Below are positions 645 to 57,928 of a stretch of DNA of 64,000 nucleotides, in pieces. Made by a program: the position numbers and the translations under genes. The notes under the pieces are model-generated. The model saw only the letters and a program-made list of their open reading frames with translations. It made no database searches and had not been told where the DNA came from. The stretch is from Ruegeria lacuscaerulensis. GTDB taxonomy: Bacteria; Pseudomonadota; Alphaproteobacteria; Rhodobacterales; Rhodobacteraceae. Numbering within the stretch: position 1 is the first letter of the stretch; every line of letters begins with the position of its first letter. The stretch is from contig NZ_WQGO01000004.1 in assembly GCF_013034685.1 (NCBI RefSeq), forward strand, positions 124,001 through 188,000. The letters run 5' to 3'.

Positions 645-2450
645 TCAGAAGGTCCGCGCCTTCGGAGCGATTTTCTTAAGGCTGATGCCGCCTTCGGCTT
701 CGGTCGTCAGCGGGTCCGCAATCACAGGGCGATAGCTGAGCTCGACCTTGTTGCCCTCGACCCGGCTAACGGTGTGAACGCGCCAGTTCTCATCATCGCG
801 CTCGGCAAAGTCCTCATGGGCGTGGGCACCACGAGATTCCTTACGCGCTTCGGCTCCGACGATCGTCGCCAATGCGCTCGGCATCAGGTTGCCCAGTTCC
901 AGCGTCTCCATCAGGTCGCTGTTCCAGACCAGCGAGCGGTCGGTGACTTTCAGATCGTCCATCTTGGCTGCAATGGCCGTCATCTTTTCGACGCCTTCAG
1001 CCATGGTCTTGGCGGTACGGAATACTGCCGCGTCAGCCTGCATGGTTTTCTGCATCTCAAGTCGCAGGTCGGCGGTCGGGATCGAACCATTGGCGTTGCG
1101 TGCCGCATCGAACCGGTCAAACGCCTTATCGACCGACGCCTGATTCAGTACCGGATTCGCAGCCTCGGCATCTACAACCTTACCGGCCCGGATCGCGGCC
1201 GCGCGGCCAAAGACCACAAGGTCGATCAAAGAGTTCGAGCCCAAGCGGTTTGCCCCATGAACCGAGGCACATCCGGCCTCGCCGACAGCCATCAGACCGG
1301 GAACCACGGCGGTTGGGTTATCGGTAGTGGGGTTCAGAACCTCACCCCAGTAGTTCGTTGGAATGCCACCCATGTTGTAGTGAACCGTCGGCAGAACAGG
1401 GATCGGCTCCTTGGTAACATCGACACCGGCAAAAATCTTGGCCGATTCTGAGATGCCGGGCAGACGTTCTGCCAGTGCCTCGGCAGGCAGGTGCGACAGG
1501 TTCAGGTGGATGTGATCCCCTTCTCCGCCCACTCCGCGCCCTTCGCGGATTTCCATGGTCATCGACCGGCTGACATAGTCACGGGGCGCAAGGTCTTTAT
1601 ACTGGGGCGCGTAGCGCTCCATGAACCGCTCACCTTCCGAGTTGGTCAGGTATCCGCCCTCGCCCCGAGCACCTTCGGTGATCAGGCAGCCCGAGCCGTA
1701 GATACCGGTCGGGTGGAACTGCACGAATTCCATATCCTGCAGGGCCAGGCCCGCGCGGGCGACCATGCCACCGCCGTCACCGGTGCAGGTATGGGCCGAT
1801 GTGGCGCTGAAATAGGCGCGCCCATAGCCGCCGGTCGCCAGTACAACCATCTTGGCGTTGAAGACATGCATCGTACCGTCGTCCAGCTTCCAGCAGACGA
1901 CGCCCTGACACTGCCCGTCCTCGGACATGATCAAGTCGATGGCGAAATATTCGATGTAGAACTCGGCGTTGTTCTTCAGCGATTGCCCGTACAGTGTATG
2001 CAGGATCGCGTGGCCGGTCCGGTCAGCAGCCGCACAGGTACGCTGTACTGCGGGTCCTTCGCCGAATTCAGTGGTGTGGCCGCCGAAGGGACGCTGATAG
2101 ATCTTGCCTTCTTCGGTCCGGCTGAACGGCACACCATAATGTTCCAGCTCGTATACTGCCTTGGGGGCCTCACGCGCCAAGTATTCCATCGCGTCGGTAT
2201 CGCCCAACCAGTCAGAGCCTTTGACGGTGTCATACATGTGCCACTGCCAATGGTCCGGCCCCATGTTCGACAGTGATGCTGCGATGCCACCCTGCGCCGC
2301 AACCGTGTGCGAGCGGGTCGGGAAAACCTTGGTCACGCAGGCGGTGCGCAGCCCTTGTTCGGCCATGCCCAGGGTGGCCCGCAGACCCGCCCCACCGGCG
2401 CCGACAACGACCACGTCATATTCATGCGTTTCGTATTCGTATGCAGCCAT
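645..2450 (-). CDS. sdhA: Succinate dehydrogenase flavoprotein subunit
   Basis: Catalytic subunit of complex II, which oxidises succinate to fumarate and passes electrons through the iron-sulfur subunit to ubiquinone at the inner face of the cytoplasmic membrane. The 601 residues match the family length. Visible are the Rossmann motif [12 protein letters not shown] near residue 14, the covalent FAD attachment motif SHTVAAQGG with His48, the substrate-loop segment [11 protein letters not shown] with TEGARGEGG, and the C-terminal domain after about residue 450. It is the last gene of sdhC-sdhD-sdhA, 18 bp after sdhD. The iron-sulfur subunit gene sdhB does not follow; a terminator does. Confidence 0.97.
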
Positions 2451-2468: not shown

Positions 2469-2840
2469 TTAGAGGGCAATGCGGGCGATGGCGAACAGGC
2501 CCGCCGCAGCCGCGCCATAGGACAGGCAGGTTGTCAGGATGATCAGGACCTTCTCGGTCGTGCCGTGGGCATAATCCTCAAGCATCACCTGTGCGCCTTC
2601 GGCGAAGTGTTTCATACCGATCACCAATGTCAGCGCCGCAACAATCGCCGGGAACGGGCGCGAATAATAGTCCAGGACCACATCGTAGGGCTGCCCCAAC
2701 ACGGGACCAAAGGTGAAGATGAACAGCGGAACAAGGATCAGCAAAGCCACCGAGCTGACCTTCATCCGCCAAAAATGGGCTGTGCCCGCTTTGGCCGATC
2801 CCAGGCCAGTTGCGCGTTTGCGGTCTGTCAAATAACGCAT
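2469..2840 (-). CDS. sdhD: Succinate dehydrogenase membrane anchor subunit
   Basis: Small hydrophobic anchor of complex II; with SdhC it holds haem b and the ubiquinone site. The 123 residues contain three predicted membrane helices (about 28-46, 62-82, 96-118). HFAEGAQVMLEDYAHG carries the conserved His and the D-Y-x-H segment that lines the haem/quinone region in SdhD proteins. A strong AAAGGAGG ribosome-binding site precedes the ATG. It lies between sdhC and sdhA with gaps of 12 and 18 bp, as expected for one transcript. Confidence 0.93.
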   Translation of the reverse strand: MRYLTDRKRATGLGSAKAGTAHFWRMKVSSVALLILVPLFIFTFGPVLGQPYDVVLDYYSRPFPAIVAALTLVIGMKHFAEGAQVMLEDYAHGTTEKVLIILTTCLSYGAAAAGLFAIARIAL

Positions 2841-2852
2841 GGTTGGCCTCCT

Positions 2853-3239
2853 TTAAGCAACGATAATCAGGGTCAGAAGGGTCAGGACAACCGATCCGCC
2901 AACTACAGCCCAACCCAATTTAGTAGCAGTGGGAATATCCAGGCCCATCGCGTTGTCCCAAATCAGATGCCGAATACCGGCCAGCGTGTGATACCACAGC
3001 CCCCACAAAGACAGCGCCATGACCAGATCGCCCAAAACCGACGTCAGCCACCAGTTCGCGCGCTCGAATGCCTCGGGCGAGGTCGCAGCGGCCAGAAACC
3101 ACCAGACGATCAGCAAAGCAGCCACGATCATGGCGTTCCCGGTGATGCGTGTCAGGATGGATGTGACCGAGGTCAATTGCGGACGATAGATCGACAGATG
3201 CGGAGAAAGCGGGCGATTGCCCCGATTAACATCGGCCAT
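2853..3239 (-). CDS. sdhC: Succinate dehydrogenase cytochrome b556 subunit
   Basis: First gene of the sdh operon; membrane cytochrome b subunit of complex II. The 128 residues begin MADVNRGNRPLSPHLSIYRP, the typical SdhC amino end with the R-P-x-S-P-H-L-x-I-Y signature, followed by three membrane helices. HTLAGIRHLIWD holds the conserved haem-ligand region. A longer in-frame start exists at 3365, but the ATG at 3239 is preceded by AAAAGGAG and matches the family, so it was chosen. The long leader upstream contains the paired GTGATCAC operator at 3354-3382. Confidence 0.95.
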   Translation of the reverse strand: MADVNRGNRPLSPHLSIYRPQLTSVTSILTRITGNAMIVAALLIVWWFLAAATSPEAFERANWWLTSVLGDLVMALSLWGLWYHTLAGIRHLIWDNAMGLDIPTATKLGWAVVGGSVVLTLLTLIIVA

Positions 3240-3353
3240 GGCGGCTCCTTTTCGGTTGGCTACCGAACGTTTTACTGGTTTTTGCGACACTGTCACGTGC
3301 TGCACATGCAAAAAAGCCGCAAATTGACGCAATATGGCAGATATCGGCAAGTT

Positions 3354-3382
3354 GTGATCACGCAAAATAATGACGTGATCAC
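3354..3382 (-). promoter_or_regulatory. Paired GTGATCAC operator upstream of sdhC
   Basis: Two perfect 8-bp palindromes GTGATCAC lie at 3354-3361 and 3375-3382, starts 21 bp apart (two helical turns). In transcription orientation the outer flanks are TTTTGTGATCAC and GTGATCACAA. The nearest base is 114 nt before the sdhC ATG. The same arrangement with the same spacing lies before sucC. The binding protein is not known from the sequence. Confidence 0.7.
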
Positions 3383-6805: not shown

Positions 6806-6938
6806 TGGCCTCTCCAAAAAGAAATAAAGTTGCGCAGAATGGGGCATTTTTTTTCGGAAAGTTCAAGAGCAAAATCGCCGCATCGCAGCATTCGCGACGC
6901 AACGTGCGTTGGTTTAACCGGATTTCGGTGCCTGATCC

Positions 6939-6972
6939 GCACCCTTTGGGACAGATGGATTCGAAAGGGTGC
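6939..6972 (+). promoter_or_regulatory. Inverted repeat covering the ribosome-binding site
   Basis: GCACCCTTT (6939-6947) and AAAGGGTGC (6964-6972) are perfect 9-bp arms around a 16-nt loop. The right arm contains the AAAGGG Shine-Dalgarno of the secreted protein starting at 6977. The hairpin could hide the ribosome-binding site in the mRNA, or be a DNA operator. Confidence 0.5.
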
Positions 6973-7276: not shown

Positions 7277-8028
7277 GTCAGCGCATCCCAAATCAGCTTG
7301 CTGCCTGTCAGGGTCAGAAGCACATAGGCAATGCTAAAGAACAGGCGCTCGGACATCATGAAATGTGCCCGGACGCCCAACCACGCGCCAAGAATGGCGA
7401 AAGGGGTCAGTAGTAAATCCGCCAGCGCGGTGTGCCAGGTGAACAGGCCCAGATAGGCGAAAGGCACAAATTTCGCCGCGTTGATCACCCAGAAGACCAG
7501 CACGGTGCTGGCCTGAAACTCGGTCTTCGACAGGCGCTGCGACAGCAGGTAGACGGCGGCGGGTGGGCCGCCAGCATGGCTGACAAAGCTGGTGAACCCG
7601 GCCACCAGCCCCGCAAACAGCCCGGCCGAGGGCGGCAACCGGTTGGCAAATCCGCGAATCCAGCCCTTGCTTTGCGCCATATGCCAGATCACGAACCCAA
7701 CCGAGATCCCTCCGATCAGCAGGCGCAGCAAATCGTCATCTGTCACGCGGTACAGCCACGCGCCCAGCGCGATGCCGGGCACAGCGCCAAGGATTAACAG
7801 GCGCGAATCCGGCCAGCTCCAGCGCTTCCAATAAGGCTTCAACGTGGCAACATCGATCACCATCAGGATGGGCAACATCAGCGCCAGCGCCTGTCCCGGC
7901 GTCAGGATCAGTGCCAGAATCGATGAGGATGCAAAGGCCACACCCGACCCGAACCCGCCCTTGGAAATGCCTGCAAAGATCACCGCCGGGATCGCCACCG
8001 CAAAAAACACAAAATTCAACTCAAACAT
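7273..8028 (-). CDS. Sulfite exporter TauE/SafE family permease
   Basis: 251-residue polytopic membrane protein with about seven to eight hydrophobic segments. GISKGGFGSGVAFASSSILA near the amino end and GFTSFVSHAGGPPAAVYLL in the second half are the paired repeats of the TauE/SafE (DUF81) fold. Members export sulfite, sulfoacetate or other organic anions; the substrate here is unknown. It stands alone on the minus strand, divergent from mdh with 158 bp between, and overlaps the stop of the small secreted protein by four bases. Confidence 0.88.
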   Translation of the reverse strand: MFELNFVFFAVAIPAVIFAGISKGGFGSGVAFASSSILALILTPGQALALMLPILMVIDVATLKPYWKRWSWPDSRLLILGAVPGIALGAWLYRVTDDDLLRLLIGGISVGFVIWHMAQSKGWIRGFANRLPPSAGLFAGLVAGFTSFVSHAGGPPAAVYLLSQRLSKTEFQASTVLVFWVINAAKFVPFAYLGLFTWHTALADLLLTPFAILGAWLGVRAHFMMSERLFFSIAYVLLTLTGSKLIWDALT

Positions 8029-8141
8029 GCGGCGGTTCCGAAAAAGCGTATCTCAAAGGCCGTTTAGCGCAATCAAAGCGCCCCAGCAACGGTATGCGGT
8101 TGTATGCCGCGTCGTGAAACCCTTGCGTATTGCCGCTTTAG

Positions 8142-9149
<1,008 letters not shown>

Positions 9150-9204: not shown

Positions 9205-9464
9205 GTCGCGTGTCGTCGCATATCGGTCGCACATGTTGGCGCAAACAGAGTAAATACCGGTTTCTGAATGCGTTACCTATCGCGAAGATGGCGCGCTCGA
9301 ATCACTTTCCACATCAGTTTATTTTTGTGATCACACCTGAAAATACTGTGATCACAAATAGTGAAAATCTTCGTGAAATACCGCTTTGCTATCAAAAAAG
9401 CCTTTAAACTTGTCCCCTACACACCCCTATAAAAGGTCAATCGTAGTCAGACGGGACAATTTCG
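9205..9464. other. Intergenic regulatory region between mdh and sucC
   Basis: The gap between mdh and sucC is 315 bp and holds no gene. After the mdh terminator it carries the GTGATCAC operator pair (9327-9355), an AT-rich stretch with a candidate -10 element TATAAA near 9428, and an inverted repeat TTGTCCC (9410-9416) / GGGACAA (9453-9459) whose right arm ends 5 nt before the sucC start. Confidence 0.6.
9327..9355 (+). promoter_or_regulatory. Paired GTGATCAC operator upstream of sucC
   Basis: Perfect palindromes GTGATCAC at 9327-9334 and 9348-9355, starts 21 bp apart, flanked outside by TTTT and AA. The nearest base is 109 nt before the sucC ATG. Spacing, flanks and distance to the gene nearly duplicate the site upstream of sdhC, so a common regulator of both TCA operons is likely. 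Confidence 0.72.
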
Positions 9465-10658
9465 ATGAACATTCACGAATACCAAGCCAAGGCGCTTCTT
9501 CGCAGCTATGGCGCCCCGGTCTCCGACGGTCGCGCGGTTCTGCGCGCCGAGGAAGCCAAAACCGCAGCCGGTGAACTGGATGGCCCCCTTTGGGTCGTAA
9601 AGGCACAAATCCACGCGGGCGGCCGCGGCAAGGGCAGCTTCAAAGAGGCTGATGCCGGTGAAAAGGGCGGTGTCCGTCTGACCAAATCGGTCGAAGAAGC
9701 CGCCGAAGAGGCCAAAAAAATGTTGGGCCGCACGCTGGTCACGCATCAGACCGGCCCTGCAGGCAAACAGGTCAACCGCATCTATATCGAGGCCGGTTCC
9801 GGCATCGAGACTGAGATGTATCTTGCCCTGCTAGTAGATCGACAGACCAGCCGTATTTCCTTCGTCTGCTCGACCGAAGGCGGCATGGATATCGAAGAAG
9901 TGGCTGCAGCCACGCCCGAGAAAATCCTGTCCTTCTCGGTTGATCCGGCCACCGGCTATCAACCTTATCACGGCCGCCGCATCGCATTTTCGCTGGGTCT
10001 GCAAGGCGCACAGGTCAAACAATGCGTCAAACTGATGAGCCAGCTTTACACCGCCTTCGTCGAGAAGGACATGGAGATGCTGGAGATCAACCCACTGATC
10101 GTCTCGGACAAGGGTGATCTGAAAGTGTTGGACGCCAAGGTTGGTTTCGACGGCAACGCGGTCTACCGCCACCCCGATATCGCTGAACTGCGCGACGAGA
10201 CCGAAGAAGACCCCAAGGAACTCGAAGCCTCGAAATACGACCTGAACTACATCGCGCTGGATGGTGAGATCGGGTGCATGGTGAACGGTGCCGGTCTGGC
10301 GATGGCCACGATGGACATCATCAAACTGTACGGGGCCGAGCCTGCCAACTTCCTCGACGTGGGTGGCGGTGCCACTAAAGAGAAAGTGACCGAGGCGTTC
10401 AAGATCATCACCTCGGACCCGAACGTCAAAGGCATTCTGGTCAACATCTTCGGCGGCATCATGCGCTGTGATGTGATCGCCGAGGGCGTTGTGGCGGCCG
10501 TGAAAGAGGTCGGCCTGCAGGTTCCGCTGGTCGTGCGTCTGGAAGGCACCAATGTCGAGAAAGGCAAAGAGATCATCAATACCTCTGGCTTGGACGTGAT
10601 CGCGGCAGACAACCTGAAAGACGGGGCCGAGAAGATCGTGAAGGCGGTTAAGGGGTAA
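9465..10658 (+). CDS. sucC: Succinyl-CoA ligase (ADP-forming) beta subunit
   Basis: With SucD it interconverts succinyl-CoA and succinate with substrate-level phosphorylation. The 397 residues start [20 protein letters not shown], the canonical SucC amino end; an ATP-grasp domain fills the first 240 residues ([14 protein letters not shown] binds the nucleotide; [10 protein letters not shown] is the metal-binding segment), and the CoA-ligase domain ends with [16 protein letters not shown]. The ribosome-binding site is weak (GGGAC) and lies in the arm of an inverted repeat. sucD does not follow directly: a palindromic element and a 133-codon ORF intervene. Confidence 0.97.
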
Positions 10659-11153: not shown

Positions 11154-12035
11154 ATGGCAGTCCTCATCGACGAAAATACCAAAGTGATCTGTCAGGGCTT
11201 TACCGGCTCCCAGGGCACATTCCACTCTGAACAGGCCATCGCTTATGGCACTAAGATGGTCGGCGGTGTGACGCCGGGCAAAGGCGGGATGACCCATCTT
11301 GACCTGCCCGTGTTCAACTCGGTCCACGAGGCAAAGCATGTGACCGAGGCGAACGCCTCGGTGATCTATGTTCCGCCGCCCTTCGCAGCTGACTCGATCC
11401 TCGAAGCGATTGATGCCGAGATGGAAGTGATCGTCTGCATCACCGAAGGCATCCCGGTTCTGGACATGATGAAGGTGAAACGCGCGCTGGAAGGCTCCAA
11501 ATCGCGCCTGATCGGCCCGAACTGCCCCGGTGTCATCACGCCCGACGCCTGCAAAATCGGCATCATGCCCGGCCACATTCACAAGCGCGGCTCGGTCGGT
11601 GTTGTGTCGCGTTCGGGCACTCTGACCTATGAGGCCGTCAAACAGACCACCGATGTGGGTCTGGGCCAATCCACCTGTGTGGGCATCGGCGGCGACCCGA
11701 TCAAAGGCACCGAGCATATCGACGTGCTGGAATGGTTCCTGGCCGATGACGAGACTCACTCGATCATCATGATCGGTGAGATCGGTGGCTCGGCCGAAGA
11801 AGAAGCCGCGCAATTCCTGGCGGATGAGGCCAAGAAGGGCCGCAAAAAGCCCGTCGCAGGCTTCATCGCAGGCCGCACCGCCCCTCCGGGCCGCCGCATG
11901 GGCCACGCGGGCGCGATCGTCGCCGGCGGCAAAGGTGGCGCCGAGGACAAGATCGAAGCCATGCGCTCGGCCGGTATCGTTGTGGCAGAAAGCCCCGCGA
12001 CGCTGGGTGAGGCCGTGCTGGAAGCGATTGGCTGA
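11154..12035 (+). CDS. sucD: Succinyl-CoA ligase (ADP-forming) alpha subunit
   Basis: Partner of SucC. The 293 residues start [20 protein letters not shown]; the CoA-binding Rossmann domain includes GGVTPGKGG, and [11 protein letters not shown] and GEIGGSAEE are family motifs. The phosphorylated catalytic histidine is His251 in [12 protein letters not shown] clear AGGAG lies 8 nt before the start. It is preceded by the orphan ORF and followed by a repeat-rich spacer and two DUF805 genes before sucA. Confidence 0.97.
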
Positions 12036-12687: not shown

Positions 12688-13226
12688 CCTTCTCTGACGC
12701 CATCCGCACCTGTTTCTCCAAGTTCTTCACCTTCTCGGGTCGCGCCTCGCGGCCTGAATACTGGTTCTTTTTCCTGTTCATCGTGATCTGGAGCCTCATC
12801 GCCGGGATCATCGACTGGCAATTCTTCACTCAGGTCGCCGTGACCGAAACCGAGACATCCAAATCCGTCACGGCCTCCTCCTCGGGGCCGGTGCAGACCA
12901 TCGTCAGCCTGATCGTGTTCTTCCCGCATCTGGCGGTCGCGTGGCGGCGGATGCATGACAGCGGACGCAGCGGTCTTTATGCTCTGTTTCCGCTGCTCCT
13001 GATGGCCGGAGCCGTTGCTGTGCTGGTGTTCGGCATTGGAATGGCGTCCAGCTTCCAGCATGGCGGCAATCTGGATATCCTGTTCACCCGCGCGACTTTA
13101 CTGATTGTTATACCCACACTTCTAGTCCTGATGATCTCGCCCCTCCTGGTGCTGTGGTGGCTGACCCGCCCCAGCCAGCCAGGCACCAACCAATACGGTC
13201 CCAACCCATATGAGGTAACCCAATGA
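12684..13226 (+). CDS. DUF805 family membrane protein (second of a tandem pair)
   Basis: 180 residues with the signature FTFSGRASRPEYWFFFL, then WRRMHDSGRSGL and a C-terminal NQYGPNPYEV tail that is typical of DUF805 proteins. About four membrane helices. A GGAG lies 7 nt before the start; the start overlaps the previous gene by ATGA, and its own stop overlaps the sucA start by ATGA. Both DUF805 genes are therefore translationally coupled to sucA. Why an inner-membrane protein of unknown role should be coupled to a TCA enzyme is unclear. Confidence 0.85.
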   Translation: MTFSDAIRTCFSKFFTFSGRASRPEYWFFFLFIVIWSLIAGIIDWQFFTQVAVTETETSKSVTASSSGPVQTIVSLIVFFPHLAVAWRRMHDSGRSGLYALFPLLLMAGAVAVLVFGIGMASSFQHGGNLDILFTRATLLIVIPTLLVLMISPLLVLWWLTRPSQPGTNQYGPNPYEVTQ

Positions 13227-16180
13227 CCGAGCACTCGCCCAACTCCGCCTTTCATGCCTCAAGCTTCATGCAGGGGCACAATGCCGAATATCTGGAACAG
13301 CTATACACTCAATACACGCGGGACCCGAATGCAGTAGATGCGGCCTGGGTCGAGTTCTTTCGCGCCATGGGCGATGCTTCGCCGGATGTGCAGCGCGAGG
13401 CCGAGGGCCCGTCCTGGGCGCGCACTGACTGGCCGCCGATGCCTGCGGATGACCTGACGGGCGCGCTTACCGGTGAGTGGGTCGAGATCGACGCCAAGGC
13501 GGCGGGCAAAAAGATCAAGGACAAAGCAGCGGACAAGGGCGTTGCGGTCAGCGAAGATCAGATCAAGCGCGCGGTTCTGGACAGCCTGCGCGCACTAATG
13601 CTGATCCGGGCCTATCGTATCCGGGGTCATCTGGCCGCCAATCTGGACCCGTTGGGGATGCGTGCTGCGACCAACCACCCCGAATTGGACCCCAAGACCT
13701 ATGGCTTTACCGAGGCCGACATGGACCGGCCGATCTTTATCGACAACGTGCTGGGCCTGCAGATGGCCTCGATGCGGCAGATCGTCGATATCGTGAAGCG
13801 GACCTATTGCGGCACCTTCGCGCTGCAATACATGCATATTTCCGATCCCGAACAGGCCGCGTGGCTGAAAGAGCGGATCGAAGGCTATGGCAAGGAAATC
13901 GCGTTCACCAAGGAAGGCCGCAAGGCGATCCTGAACAAGATGGTCGAGGCCGAGGGTTTCGAGAAATTCCTGCACGTCAAATACATGGGCACCAAGCGGT
14001 TCGGTCTGGACGGCGGTGAGGCTCTGATCCCCGCGATGGAACAGATCATCAAGCGCGGCGGCGCGCTGGGTGTGCGTGACATTGTTATCGGGATGCCGCA
14101 CCGAGGCCGTCTTAACATTCTGGCCAACGTGATGCGCAAACCCTATCGCGCGATCTTCAACGAATTCCAGGGCGGCAGCTTCAAGCCCGAGGATGTGGAT
14201 GGCTCAGGCGATGTAAAATACCACCTGGGTGCGTCCAGCGACCGGGAATTTGACGGCAACAATGTCCACCTGTCGCTGACCGCCAACCCCAGCCACCTTG
14301 AGGCTGTGAACCCGGTGGTTCTGGGCAAGGTCCGCGCCAAGCAGGACCAGCTGAAGGATGACGAGCGTACGGCGGTGATGGGCATTCTGCTGCACGGCGA
14401 CGCGGCCTTTGCAGGTCAGGGCGTTGTGGCCGAAGGGTTCGGTCTATCCGGCCTTCGGGGGCATAAGACCGGTGGCACCATGCATATCGTGGTGAACAAC
14501 CAGATTGGTTTCACCACGGCGCCTCATTTCAGCCGCTCCAGCCCCTATCCCACCGATATCGCGCTGATGGTTGAAGCGCCGATTTTCCACGTGAACGGTG
14601 ACGATCCCGAGGCGGTGGTTCACGCCGCAAAAGTGGCGACCGAATTCCGCCAGAAGTTCCACAAGGACGTGGTTATCGACATCTTCTGCTATCGCCGGTT
14701 TGGTCACAACGAGGGCGATGAGCCCATGTTCACCAACCCGATCATGTACAAAAAGATCAAGACGCATAAGACCACGCTGTCGCTTTATACAGAACGTCTG
14801 GTCAAGGATGGCCTGATCCCCGAAGGCGAAATCGAGGATATGAAAGCCGCTTTCCAGGCCCACCTGAATGACGAGTTCGAGGCCGGGAAAGATTACAAAC
14901 CCAACAAGGCCGACTGGCTGGACGGGCGCTGGTCACATCTGGACAAAAACAAAGAAGAGTATGTCCGGGGCGACACGGCGATCTCGCCGGAAACCATGGC
15001 CGAGGTCGGCAACGCTCTGACCCATGTGCCCGAAGATATCGCGCTGCACAAAACCGTCGGCCGACTTTTGGACCACAAGAAAAAGATGTTCGAAAGCGGC
15101 AAAGGGTTCGACTGGGCAACCGGCGAAGCGCTGGCGTTTGGCTCGCTTCTAACCGAGGGCTATCCGGTCCGCTTGTCCGGTCAGGATGCAACGCGAGGGA
15201 CATTCAGCCAACGCCACTCGGGCTTTGTGCATCAGGAGACCGAGGCACGATACTATCCGCTCAACAACATCCGGGCCGGACAGTCGCACTATGAAGTGAT
15301 CGACTCGATGCTGTCGGAATATGCGGTGCTGGGTTTTGAATACGGCTATTCGCTGGCCGAACCCAATGCCCTGACCTTATGGGAGGCGCAGTTCGGCGAC
15401 TTTGCCAACGGCGCGCAGATCATGTTTGACCAGTTCATCAGCTCGGGTGAAAGCAAATGGCTGCGTATGTCCGGTTTGGTCTGTCTGTTGCCGCACGGGT
15501 TTGAAGGTCAGGGGCCTGAACACTCGTCCGCGCGTCTGGAACGCTTCCTGCAGATGTGCGGGCAGGACAACTGGATCGTGGCGAACTGCACGACGCCGGC
15601 GAACTATTTCCACATCCTGCGCCGCCAGCTGCACAGGACTTTCCGAAAACCGCTGATCATGGTGACGCCAAAATCACTGCTGCGTCACAAATTGGCCGTC
15701 AGCACCGCAGATCAATTCACCACCGGATCCAGCTTCCACCGGGTGCTGTGGGATGACGCGCAGCATGGCAATTCTGACACCAAGCTGGTCAAGGATGACA
15801 AGATCAAGCGAGTCGTTCTGTGTTCTGGCAAGGTCTACTATGACCTGTTGGAAGAACGCGACGCGCGCGGCATCGACGACGTCTATCTGATGCGGATCGA
15901 GCAATATTATCCTTTCCCCGCGCATTCGCTGATCAACGAGCTTGAGCGTTTCAAGGGCGCCGAGATCGTCTGGTGTCAGGAAGAGCCCAAGAACCAAGGT
16001 GCCTGGACCTTTATCGAACCCAACATCGAATGGGTTTTGACCCGGATTAAAGCCAAACATACACGGCCCCGCTATGTCGGTCGCGCCACTTCGGCCTCGC
16101 CCGCGACGGGTCTGGCCAGCCAACACAAAGCCCAACAAGAAGCGCTGGTAAACGAAGCGCTGAGCATTGAAGGAAAGTAA
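13223..16180 (+). CDS. sucA: 2-oxoglutarate dehydrogenase E1 component
   Basis: Thiamine diphosphate-dependent decarboxylation of 2-oxoglutarate and transfer of the succinyl group to the lipoyl arm of SucB. The 985 residues are full length. The amino end carries the E2-binding segment ([19 protein letters not shown]); [27 protein letters not shown] and FGHNEGDEP are the catalytic His and ThDP/Mg motifs; [14 protein letters not shown] and the C-terminal EEPKNQGAW complete the fold. It overlaps the second DUF805 gene by 4 bp and sucB by one base (TAATG). Confidence 0.97.
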
Positions 16181-56881: not shown

Positions 56882-57928
56882 TTACCCTTTGCGCTGAAAC
56901 TCCCACGCCCCGTCTGCGCGCCGCGTCCGGGTCACCGCTCCAATGTGATAGAGATGGTTCAGATGTGCAACTGACTCGACCAGCGCTAGCCCATATTCGC
57001 CGTCGCCGATCTCGCGTTTGAACAGGGGCGGAAAACACTCGGCGGCGGTTTTAGGCGTGTTCAGAAAATCGGTCAGACGTTCCAGCGCGCTGTGATGGTT
57101 GTTGATCAGTTGCTTCATCCGCAACGGCAGCCCGGTAAAGGGCAGTTTGTGCCCGCCCAGCGCCAGATGATCGGGCTGCGCGAGGCCCTGCAAACGCTCG
57201 CACGCGTCCAGCCATTCGGCCACCGGGTCGGCCAGCGGCTCGGTGACGTAGACCCCCAGATTGGGGCTGATCGAGCTGAGGATCTGATCGCCGGTGATCA
57301 CCAGATTGTCGTCGCGGCTCCAGAAGGTGGCATGTTCGGGCGCGTGGCCATTGCCGATATGCACGTCCCAGTCGCGCCCACCCATGCGGATCACGCTGCC
57401 CTGCTTGATCCGGGTAAAGCCCAGTGGCATCGGATAGACCGTGTCGCAGAAGTTAAAGGGTCGTTCGGTCATTCGTTTGGCCAGGAAATCCGAATCCATG
57501 CCGGCGCTGCGGTAATAATCCAGCGTCTCGTTCGGCCAAGTTTCCTGGACGTCCAGTTGCAGCATTCGGGAAAACAGCCAGGCGGTGCGGGTCGTGACCA
57601 GTTCGGCCCCGTGTTCGGACTGAAACCACCCGGCGTTGCCTACGTGATCAGGATGGTGATGTGTGACGACCACCCGTTTGACTGGCTTGCCAGCCAACGG
57701 ACCGGCCATCAGGCCGGTCCAGATGCGCCGGGTCTTGTTCGAGGACAGCCCCGTGTCAATCAGCGTCCACCCATCGCCGTCATCCAGCGCATAGACATTG
57801 ACGTGATCCAGCGCCATAGGCAGCGGCAGGCGCATCCACAACACGCCTTCGGCAATCTCGATCGCTTCACCTGGTGCCGGAGGCTCGGGCCAAGGATAGC
57901 GGATCGTCAGCGCGGTATCTCCGTCCAT
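56882..57928 (-). CDS. MBL fold metallo-hydrolase
   Basis: 348 residues. THHHPDHVGN (His90, His92, Asp94, His95) is the zinc motif of the metallo-beta-lactamase fold, with IGNGHAPEHATFW and GGHKLPF as later ligands, and a C-terminal helical region. The substrate is unknown; the position next to an acyl-CoA dehydrogenase suggests a CoA thioester or lactone. The start overlaps the dehydrogenase stop by one base. Confidence 0.88.
   Translation of the reverse strand: MDGDTALTIRYPWPEPPAPGEAIEIAEGVLWMRLPLPMALDHVNVYALDDGDGWTLIDTGLSSNKTRRIWTGLMAGPLAGKPVKRVVVTHHHPDHVGNAGWFQSEHGAELVTTRTAWLFSRMLQLDVQETWPNETLDYYRSAGMDSDFLAKRMTERPFNFCDTVYPMPLGFTRIKQGSVIRMGGRDWDVHIGNGHAPEHATFWSRDDNLVITGDQILSSISPNLGVYVTEPLADPVAEWLDACERLQGLAQPDHLALGGHKLPFTGLPLRMKQLINNHHSALERLTDFLNTPKTAAECFPPLFKREIGDGEYGLALVESVAHLNHLYHIGAVTRTRRADGAWEFQRKG

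What the first reader, a model, noticed from the sequence alone, without database searches (positions are those of the whole stretch)
9327..9355. Twin GTGATCAC operators with identical 21-bp spacing at two TCA operons
Seen directly: GTGATCAC at 9327 and 9348 upstream of sucC, and the same pair, at the same 21-bp offset, at 3354 and 3375 upstream of sdhC. Outer flanks (TTTT.../...AA) and distance to the start (109 and 114 nt) also agree. Chance placement of two such pairs only before sdhC and sucC is unlikely. A dimer-of-dimers regulator bound on one DNA face and co-controlling succinate/2-oxoglutarate metabolism is inferred; I cannot name the protein.
Basis: partly seen in the sequence, partly recalled or inferred. 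Interest (0 to 1): 0.78.

Follow-up and report, generated by a model that had tools for sequence, protein, structure and literature searches.

The report
Paired AkgR switches at TCA-cycle genes
Two matching pairs of an 8-letter palindrome sit in front of the succinate dehydrogenase and succinyl-CoA synthetase genes, are kept across most of the Rhodobacteraceae family, and are most likely where the known regulator AkgR docks, at distances from the promoter that change almost only in whole turns of the DNA helix.

Summary
GTGATCAC-N13-GTGATCAC occurs exactly twice in the 4.6-Mb genome, 114 nt before sdhC and 109 nt before sucC. The pair (spacer 0-30) is in 267 of 295 family genomes, the reversed control in 1. 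In 80 loci fetched by Mdh alone, it precedes sdhC in 61 of 64 and sucC in 68 of 68 readable promoters, allowing one mismatch.

The regulator can be named. GTGATCAC is reported among binding sites of AkgR, an activator of Rhodobacter sphaeroides (PMC6365646); RSP_0981 (AkgR, recalled), a GntR regulator, was predicted to control sdh and suc (PMC4344238). The genome encodes a protein 76% identical to the one beside the TCA genes of a sphaeroides-type genome. Pair and AkgR co-occur (Fisher P = 1e-15).

New here, as far as my searches reach: the distance from pair to -35-like box falls on a 10.5-bp comb in 188 of 193 scored promoters, and 16 of 18 tree-inferred changes are whole helical turns. A/T tracts repeat about every 10 bp in between. 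This suggests AkgR dimers on one DNA face activating RNA polymerase from upstream. Binding and activation were not tested here.

The parts
3354..3382 (.). twin operator GTGATCAC-N13-GTGATCAC upstream of sdhC (gene on minus strand)
   Evidence: conserved before sdhC in 61 of 64 readable promoters of the Mdh-fetched set (59 exact, 2 with one mismatch)
9327..9355 (.). twin operator GTGATCAC-N13-GTGATCAC upstream of sucC (gene on plus strand)
   Evidence: conserved before sucC in 68 of 68 readable promoters of the Mdh-fetched set (66 exact, 2 with one mismatch)
3291..3296 (-). -35-like box GTGACA of sdhC, 57 nt after the pair
   Evidence: in related promoters GTGAC[AT] is followed, 22 nt after its first base, by TATnAA
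3269..3274 (-). -10-like box TAAAAC of sdhC, 16 nt after the -35-like hexamer
   Evidence: position +22 of the consensus anchored on GTGAC[AT]
9403..9408 (+). candidate -35 box TTTAAA of sucC, 47 nt after the pair
   Evidence: conserved TTT at offset 47-49 after the pair; position
9428..9433 (+). candidate -10 box TATAAA of sucC (weak assignment)
   Evidence: read in the sequence; no transcription start data
2853..3239 (-). sdhC, first gene of the sdh operon
   Evidence: Pfam Sdh_cyt
2469..2840 (-). sdhD
   Evidence: Pfam Sdh_cyt
645..2450 (-). sdhA
   Evidence: Pfam FAD_binding_2 and Succ_DH_flav_C
9465..10658 (+). sucC
   Evidence: Pfam ATP-grasp_2 and Ligase_CoA
11154..12035 (+). sucD
   Evidence: Pfam CoA_binding and Ligase_CoA
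13223..16180 (+). sucA, downstream of sucCD; no twin operator of its own
   Evidence: Pfam E1_dh and OxoGdeHyase_C; no pair within 400 nt upstream

Best explanation
The two pairs are operators for AkgR, a GntR/FCD-family regulator encoded outside the window (G000:C33:26719-27363). Each GTGATCAC palindrome would take one AkgR dimer, and the two dimers sit two helical turns apart on one face of the DNA. From there AkgR activates the sdh and suc promoters from upstream of the -35 box. The distance to the -35 box may change by whole turns but hardly by fractions of a turn, as expected if AkgR touches RNA polymerase (for example its alpha C-terminal domain) on one face, helped by A/T tracts repeated about every turn between operator and promoter. 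A single GTGATCAC close to the start of akgR in part of the family suggests autoregulation. Shown: the sites, their conservation, the AkgR-like protein, the co-occurrence, the comb. From papers: the link of motif to AkgR, and the targets predicted for RSP_0981. Recalled: that RSP_0981 is AkgR and that it activates these genes directly. Inferred: one dimer per palindrome, pairing of dimers, contact with polymerase, autoregulation.
For: Exact pair (spacer 0-30) in 267 of 295 family genomes against 1 for the reversed control; exact pair with spacer 13 in 2 of 285 genomes of the class outside the family. Set chosen by Mdh only: 61 of 64 sdhC and 68 of 68 sucC readable promoters carry it with at most one mismatch, 0 of 62 sucA. 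[quoted passage not shown] RSP_0981, a GntR regulator, predicted to control sucCD, sdh and the 2-oxoglutarate dehydrogenase genes (PMC4344238, passage). Co-occurrence over 295 genomes, counted by hand from the lists: pair and strong match to the AkgR DNA-binding domain 261, pair only 6, domain only 11, neither 17; Fisher P = 1e-15. GTGATCAC within 70 nt upstream of 13 of 20 akgR relatives with a readable start (not a random sample); none of the 18 other FCD genes of this genome has it in the 500 nt before its open frame. sdhC: the first GTGAC[AT] 20-100 nt after the pair is at 47-48 in 18, 57-60 in 67, 68-70 in 6, 78-79 in 2 of 93; R(10.5) = 0.89, against 0.10 for pair-to-ATG and 0.08 for -35-to-ATG. 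Joint comb: fitted step 10.50 bp, 188 of 193. Fewest class changes on trees: 10 for sdhC, 8 for sucC; 16 of the 18 fall on the comb; P = 3e-4 or 2e-6 by window width.
Against: Five genomes (G096, G114, G256, G264, G273) keep exact pairs but show no close AkgR relative (best 28-39% identity); four are 73-93% complete, but G114 is rated 100% complete, in 320 contigs. Of the 28 genomes without an exact pair, 11 have a strong AkgR domain match; G040 (two) and G291 (one) have one-mismatch pairs before suc or sdh, G155 and G166 have one-mismatch matches whose place I did not check, the other 7 none. Among the 17 with neither, G004 and G102 have one such match each, place not checked. G051's akgR has no GTGATCAC within 200 nt upstream. 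The sdhC promoter lacks the pair in 3 of 64 Mdh-fetched loci. Four sucC promoters of one clade score best at 51 nt and one at 16 nt, off the comb. 15 of 113 sucC and 7 of 102 sdhC promoters scored under 5 bits and are not in the 193. R is slightly higher at 11.0 than at 10.5 (joint 0.875 against 0.856). The sucC model was started at 47 nt, which favours that class. No binding or expression data were examined.
Confidence: 0.82

Rival explanations
1. The sites are AkgR operators, but the pair serves repression (a roadblock, or looping between dimers), not activation.
For: Many GntR/FCD regulators repress (general knowledge); the single site close to the akgR start looks like a repressor site. 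Helical phasing also fits DNA looping.
Against: In the 193 scored promoters the pair ends upstream of the -35-like box, at 36-79 nt in 192 and at 16 nt in one, so it does not cover the promoter. PMC6365646 calls AkgR a transcriptional activator; direct activation of TCA genes is recalled from Imam 2015.
Confidence: 0.1
2. Another regulator with the same palindrome, for example a second GntR/FCD protein, binds the pairs.
For: This genome has 19 FCD proteins. A Pseudomonas GntR-like protein is proposed to bind the same GTGATCAC (PMC6365646), and outside the family a twin pair stands 167 bp before the matched part of a GntR/FCD gene only 29% identical to AkgR (L253). Five genomes have pairs without a close AkgR.
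Against: Strong co-occurrence with AkgR, AkgR-like genes near the TCA genes in G051, L092, L094, L095 and L099, and a GTGATCAC at akgR but at none of the 18 other FCD genes here.
Confidence: 0.07
3. The distance comb reflects shared ancestry and chance, not a mechanical need for one DNA face (a rival to that part of the reading only).
For: All promoters descend from one ancestor; 67 of 93 sdhC and 83 of 98 sucC promoters share one distance class. Paracoccus supplies 16 of the 18 sdhC promoters at 47-48 nt.
Against: Pair-to-ATG varies freely (107-191 nt, R = 0.10). 16 of 18 tree-inferred changes are whole turns. sdhC and sucC share one comb.
Confidence: 0.08
4. The palindromes mark GATC/TGATCA methylation or another non-regulatory signal.
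For: They contain GATC and TGATCA.
Against: Placement only at two promoters, fixed spacing, and absence together with AkgR in 17 of the 28 pairless genomes.
Confidence: 0.01

Closest known systems
AkgR regulon of Rhodobacter (Cereibacter) sphaeroides (Imam et al. 2015, mBio 6:e02461-14, not held, recalled; PMC4344238 and PMC6365646, passages)
   Same: Palindrome GTGATCAC, targets sdh and suc operons, GntR/FCD regulator, 76% identical protein, pairs present in the sphaeroides-type genome too.
   Different: Nothing functional that I could see; akgR here lies on another contig than the TCA genes. I could not read whether the original paper described the twin spacing or the distance to the promoter.
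Class I activators such as E. coli CRP (recalled)
   Same: Activator site upstream of -35 with distances allowed in steps of one helical turn.
   Different: Different protein family, different site (TGTGA-N6-TCACA against TGTGATCACA), a pair of sites here, and a spacing series read from natural promoters.
E. coli McbR (PDB 4p9f), nearest solved relative of the AkgR sequence
   Same: Matches AkgR residues 20-212; AkgR has a GntR DNA-binding domain plus FCD domain.
   Different: Sequence relative only (E = 6e-19); targets not compared.

Membership tests
AkgR regulon | operator contains the palindrome GTGATCAC | tested here: met
   motif named in PMC6365646
AkgR regulon | targets are sdh, sucCD and 2-oxoglutarate dehydrogenase operons | tested here: met
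   pairs before sdhC and sucC; predicted targets in PMC4344238. Whether sucA is in the sucC transcript was not tested.
AkgR regulon | genome encodes an AkgR ortholog | tested here: met
   76% identity to the protein beside sdh in G051; the next best match in the own genome is 37% identical to the query. That G051's gene is RSP_0981 rests on position and on the sphaeroides-type identification, not on the RSP_0981 record itself.
AkgR regulon | AkgR binds the site | not testable with these tools
   needs gel shift or ChIP-seq
AkgR regulon | AkgR activates the targets | not testable with these tools
   upstream position and helical comb fit; no expression data
GntR/FCD (FadR-subfamily) regulators | GntR winged helix plus FCD domain | tested here: met
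   PF00392 and PF07729 above cut-off
CRP/FNR regulators | TGTGA-N6-TCACA or TTGAT-N4-ATCAA site (consensus recalled) | tested here: not met
   read in the sequence: the TGTGA and TCACA halves overlap within TGTGATCACA, without the spacer

The most novel reading that the evidence does not exclude
AkgR activates the sdh and suc operons of a whole bacterial family as a pair of dimers on one DNA face, and evolution has run the classic helical-phasing experiment many times: on the trees here the operator moved by one or two full turns relative to the promoter at least 16 times and by a part turn at most twice, with A/T tracts in each turn bridging operator and polymerase. This would be a natural spacing series for a GntR-family activator.
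Probability: 0.7. Interest if true: 0.55.

Novelty: new member of a known kind. Interest (0 to 1): 0.42.

Why it matters
It ties a raw-sequence observation to a named regulator and shows that one control circuit of the succinate / 2-oxoglutarate steps is kept across most sampled genera of Rhodobacteraceae. The distance comb is a case in which comparative sequence alone points to face-of-helix activation, and it makes predictions that a simple spacing-insertion experiment can test.

Tried and rejected
mdh as a further target: no site with fewer than 2 mismatches in window 7900-8190. Degenerate pairs elsewhere in the genome (86 places at up to 3 mismatches) were not sorted. sucA as an independent target: pair in 1 of 42 family-sample loci (L082, where no sucC was found in the locus) and 0 of 62 Mdh-fetched loci. 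CceR-like sites (TTAGCGCTAA, at most 1 mismatch; my own choice of letters, fitted to the GTT-N6-8-AAC text of PMC4344238) are in 13 of 102 sdhC and 8 of 113 sucC promoters, at scattered positions, so I do not build on them. CRP/FNR was rejected on site form. A paper search for the letters GTGATCAC gave 397 papers; I saw the listing of 40, took them to be mostly oligonucleotides and used none. Structure prediction was not run: domain assignment sufficed.

Caveats on counts: the 40 regions come from 36 genomes and were chosen because they carry pairs; the 11 regions of TCA loci were chosen mainly as exceptions; only the 80 loci are chosen without regard to the pair. Promoters with under 250 nt upstream were dropped from the counts. 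One search used only the first 60 residues of AkgR, so G091, whose akgR is cut by a contig end, counts as weak although its remaining 182 residues are 82% identical. One search printed 13 of 21; one of the 21 (L122, the cut G091 gene) has no readable start, hence 13 of 20. In one search GTGAC[AT] also occurs at 15, 86, 87 and 136 nt in single promoters; the distribution given uses the first occurrence at 20-100 nt. 9 of 102 sdhC promoters have no GTGAC[AT].

Full report
Observation. GTGATCAC is at 3354, 3375, 9327 and 9348 of the window, and once more at 57294 (5 found, 1.13 expected). The pairs have a 13-nt spacer and stand 114 nt before the sdhC ATG (minus strand, gene 2853-3239) and 109 nt before the sucC ATG (9465). 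Across the 4.6-Mb genome the exact pair with any spacer of 0-30 nt is found only at these two places; the reversed pattern is not found.

Conservation. In 295 genomes of the same family, drawn evenly (294 genera), 267 have at least one exact pair and most of the listed counts are two; the reversed control is in 1. Of the class, 289 genomes were scanned with the 13-nt spacer: 3 of 4 genomes of the family and 2 of 285 of other families have a match. One of those two lies inside open frames (L254), the other stands before a different GntR/FCD gene (L253). In 40 regions from 36 genomes chosen for their pairs, the 67 pairs lie upstream of sucC (35), sdhC (31) or, in L082 where no sucC was found in the locus, sucA (1). 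In a set chosen by Mdh only (80 loci, best match Cereibacter johrii), readable promoters carry the pair before sdhC in 59 exact plus 2 one-mismatch of 64, before sucC in 66 plus 2 of 68, and before sucA in 0 of 62. The spacer is 13 or, rarely, 12.

Regulator. [quoted passage not shown] sphaeroides. [quoted passage not shown] The primary paper (Imam 2015) is not held; that it names RSP_0981 AkgR and shows direct activation is from recall. The window's genome has 19 FCD proteins. One of them, L019 (G000:C33:26719-27363, 215 aa from its ATG), has relatives of 47-70% identity near the suc genes in L092, L094, L095 and L099. To find a sphaeroides-type genome I searched the family with the reaction-centre M subunit typed from recall; only G051 is 100% identical (next 87%), with 7 contigs and 4.6 Mb. 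G051 has exact pairs before sucC and sdhC, and a 76%-identical relative of L019 4.9 kb from the sdhC-side pair (L161), a place that fits the numbering of RSP_0981 after RSP_0974-6. Its Mdh is 100% identical to that of Cereibacter johrii.

Co-occurrence. Taking a match to the first 60 residues of L019 at E below 1e-10 as AkgR present, the 295 genomes split into 261 with both, 6 with the pair only, 11 with AkgR only and 17 with neither (counted by hand from the lists; Fisher P = 1e-15). This does not correct for kinship. Of the exceptions I looked at, G091's akgR is cut by a contig end, and G040 and G291 have one-mismatch pairs before suc or sdh; G096, G114, G256, G264 and G273 remain as pairs without a close AkgR.

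akgR itself. A GTGATCAC lies within 70 nt upstream of 13 of 20 relatives with a readable start, in this genome with 8 nt between it and the ATG, and doubled with a 5-nt gap in G187. The other 18 FCD genes here have none in the 500 nt before their open frames. G051 has none within 200 nt. Autoregulation is therefore likely in part of the family only.

Promoter geometry. In sdhC promoters a GTGAC[AT] box follows the pair; aligned on it, TATnAA begins 22 nt after its first base (16 nt between hexamers), so it is taken as the -35 box (no start-site data). Its distance from the pair's end, in the 93 of 102 promoters that have it at 20-100 nt, is 47-48 in 18, 57-60 in 67, 68-70 in 6 and 78-79 in 2, with nothing between these groups. 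The mean resultant length for a 10.5-bp period is 0.89, against 0.10 for pair-to-ATG and 0.08 for -35-to-ATG. A weight-matrix search without the exact box gave the same picture for the 95 of 102 promoters scoring at least 5 bits. In sucC promoters a CGTTT ... TGTGCCA composite gave 36-37 in 7, 45-49 in 83, 68-69 in 3, 51 in 4 (one change on the tree) and 16 in 1, of 98 scoring at least 5 bits out of 113. Together 188 of 193 lie on a comb with a fitted step of 10.50 bp; the resultant length itself is marginally higher at 11.0. On protein trees the fewest changes of class are 10 for sdhC (one-against-rest: 47: 3, 69: 5, 79: 2) and 8 for sucC (37: 4, 69: 2, 51: 1, 16: 1), so 16 of 18 are whole turns; binomial P = 3e-4 if 5 of 10.5 positions count as hits, 2e-6 if 3.5 do. 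The window widths were set after seeing the data, and the trees are FastTree trees.

A/T tracts. Averaged over promoters, A/T content peaks about every 10 bp between the pair and the -35 box (near 1, 11, 21, 31 and 41 nt), amplitude 0.156 in sucC and 0.140 in sdhC against a largest value of 0.039 in 500 rotations. Upstream of the pair the effect is weak (0.033 and 0.032, largest null 0.020 and 0.021), and 100-200 nt upstream it is within the null. The null does not remove shared ancestry.

Mechanism. The simplest reading is activation from upstream by AkgR dimers on the pair, contacting polymerase on one face. If the -35 hexamer starts near -36, the proximal palindrome would centre near -87 in most sucC and near -98 in most sdhC promoters (inferred). 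Activation, cooperative binding and the effector molecule remain untested.

Status. Motif, regulator and targets were known from R. sphaeroides. The twin spacing kept across the family and the whole-turn comb were not found in print in my searches (listings and passages only), but the one paper most likely to describe the spacing was not readable.

Noticed in passing
L253:992-1020 and 1187-1819 (genome G440, another family of the class): An exact GTGATCAC-N13-GTGATCAC pair stands 167 bp before the matched part of a GntR/FCD gene only 29% identical to AkgR, so the twin layout may not be unique to AkgR.
   Followed up: partly
L082 (genome G177), 6933-6961: No sucC was found in this locus, and the pair that normally precedes sucC stands before sucA.
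   Followed up: partly
G187:C1:3357949-3357969: Two GTGATCAC only 5 nt apart (13-bp offset) upstream of akgR, unlike the 21-bp offset at the TCA operons.
   Followed up: partly
G265 (2.6-Mb genome): Ten exact pairs (spacer 0-30) where most genomes have two.
   Followed up: no
17 family genomes including G004, G014, G083, G101: Both the exact pair and a strong AkgR domain match are missing; what controls sdh and suc there is unknown.
   Followed up: no
window 57294-57301: A single GTGATCAC away from the TCA genes, in GC-rich sequence; gene context not examined.
   Followed up: no
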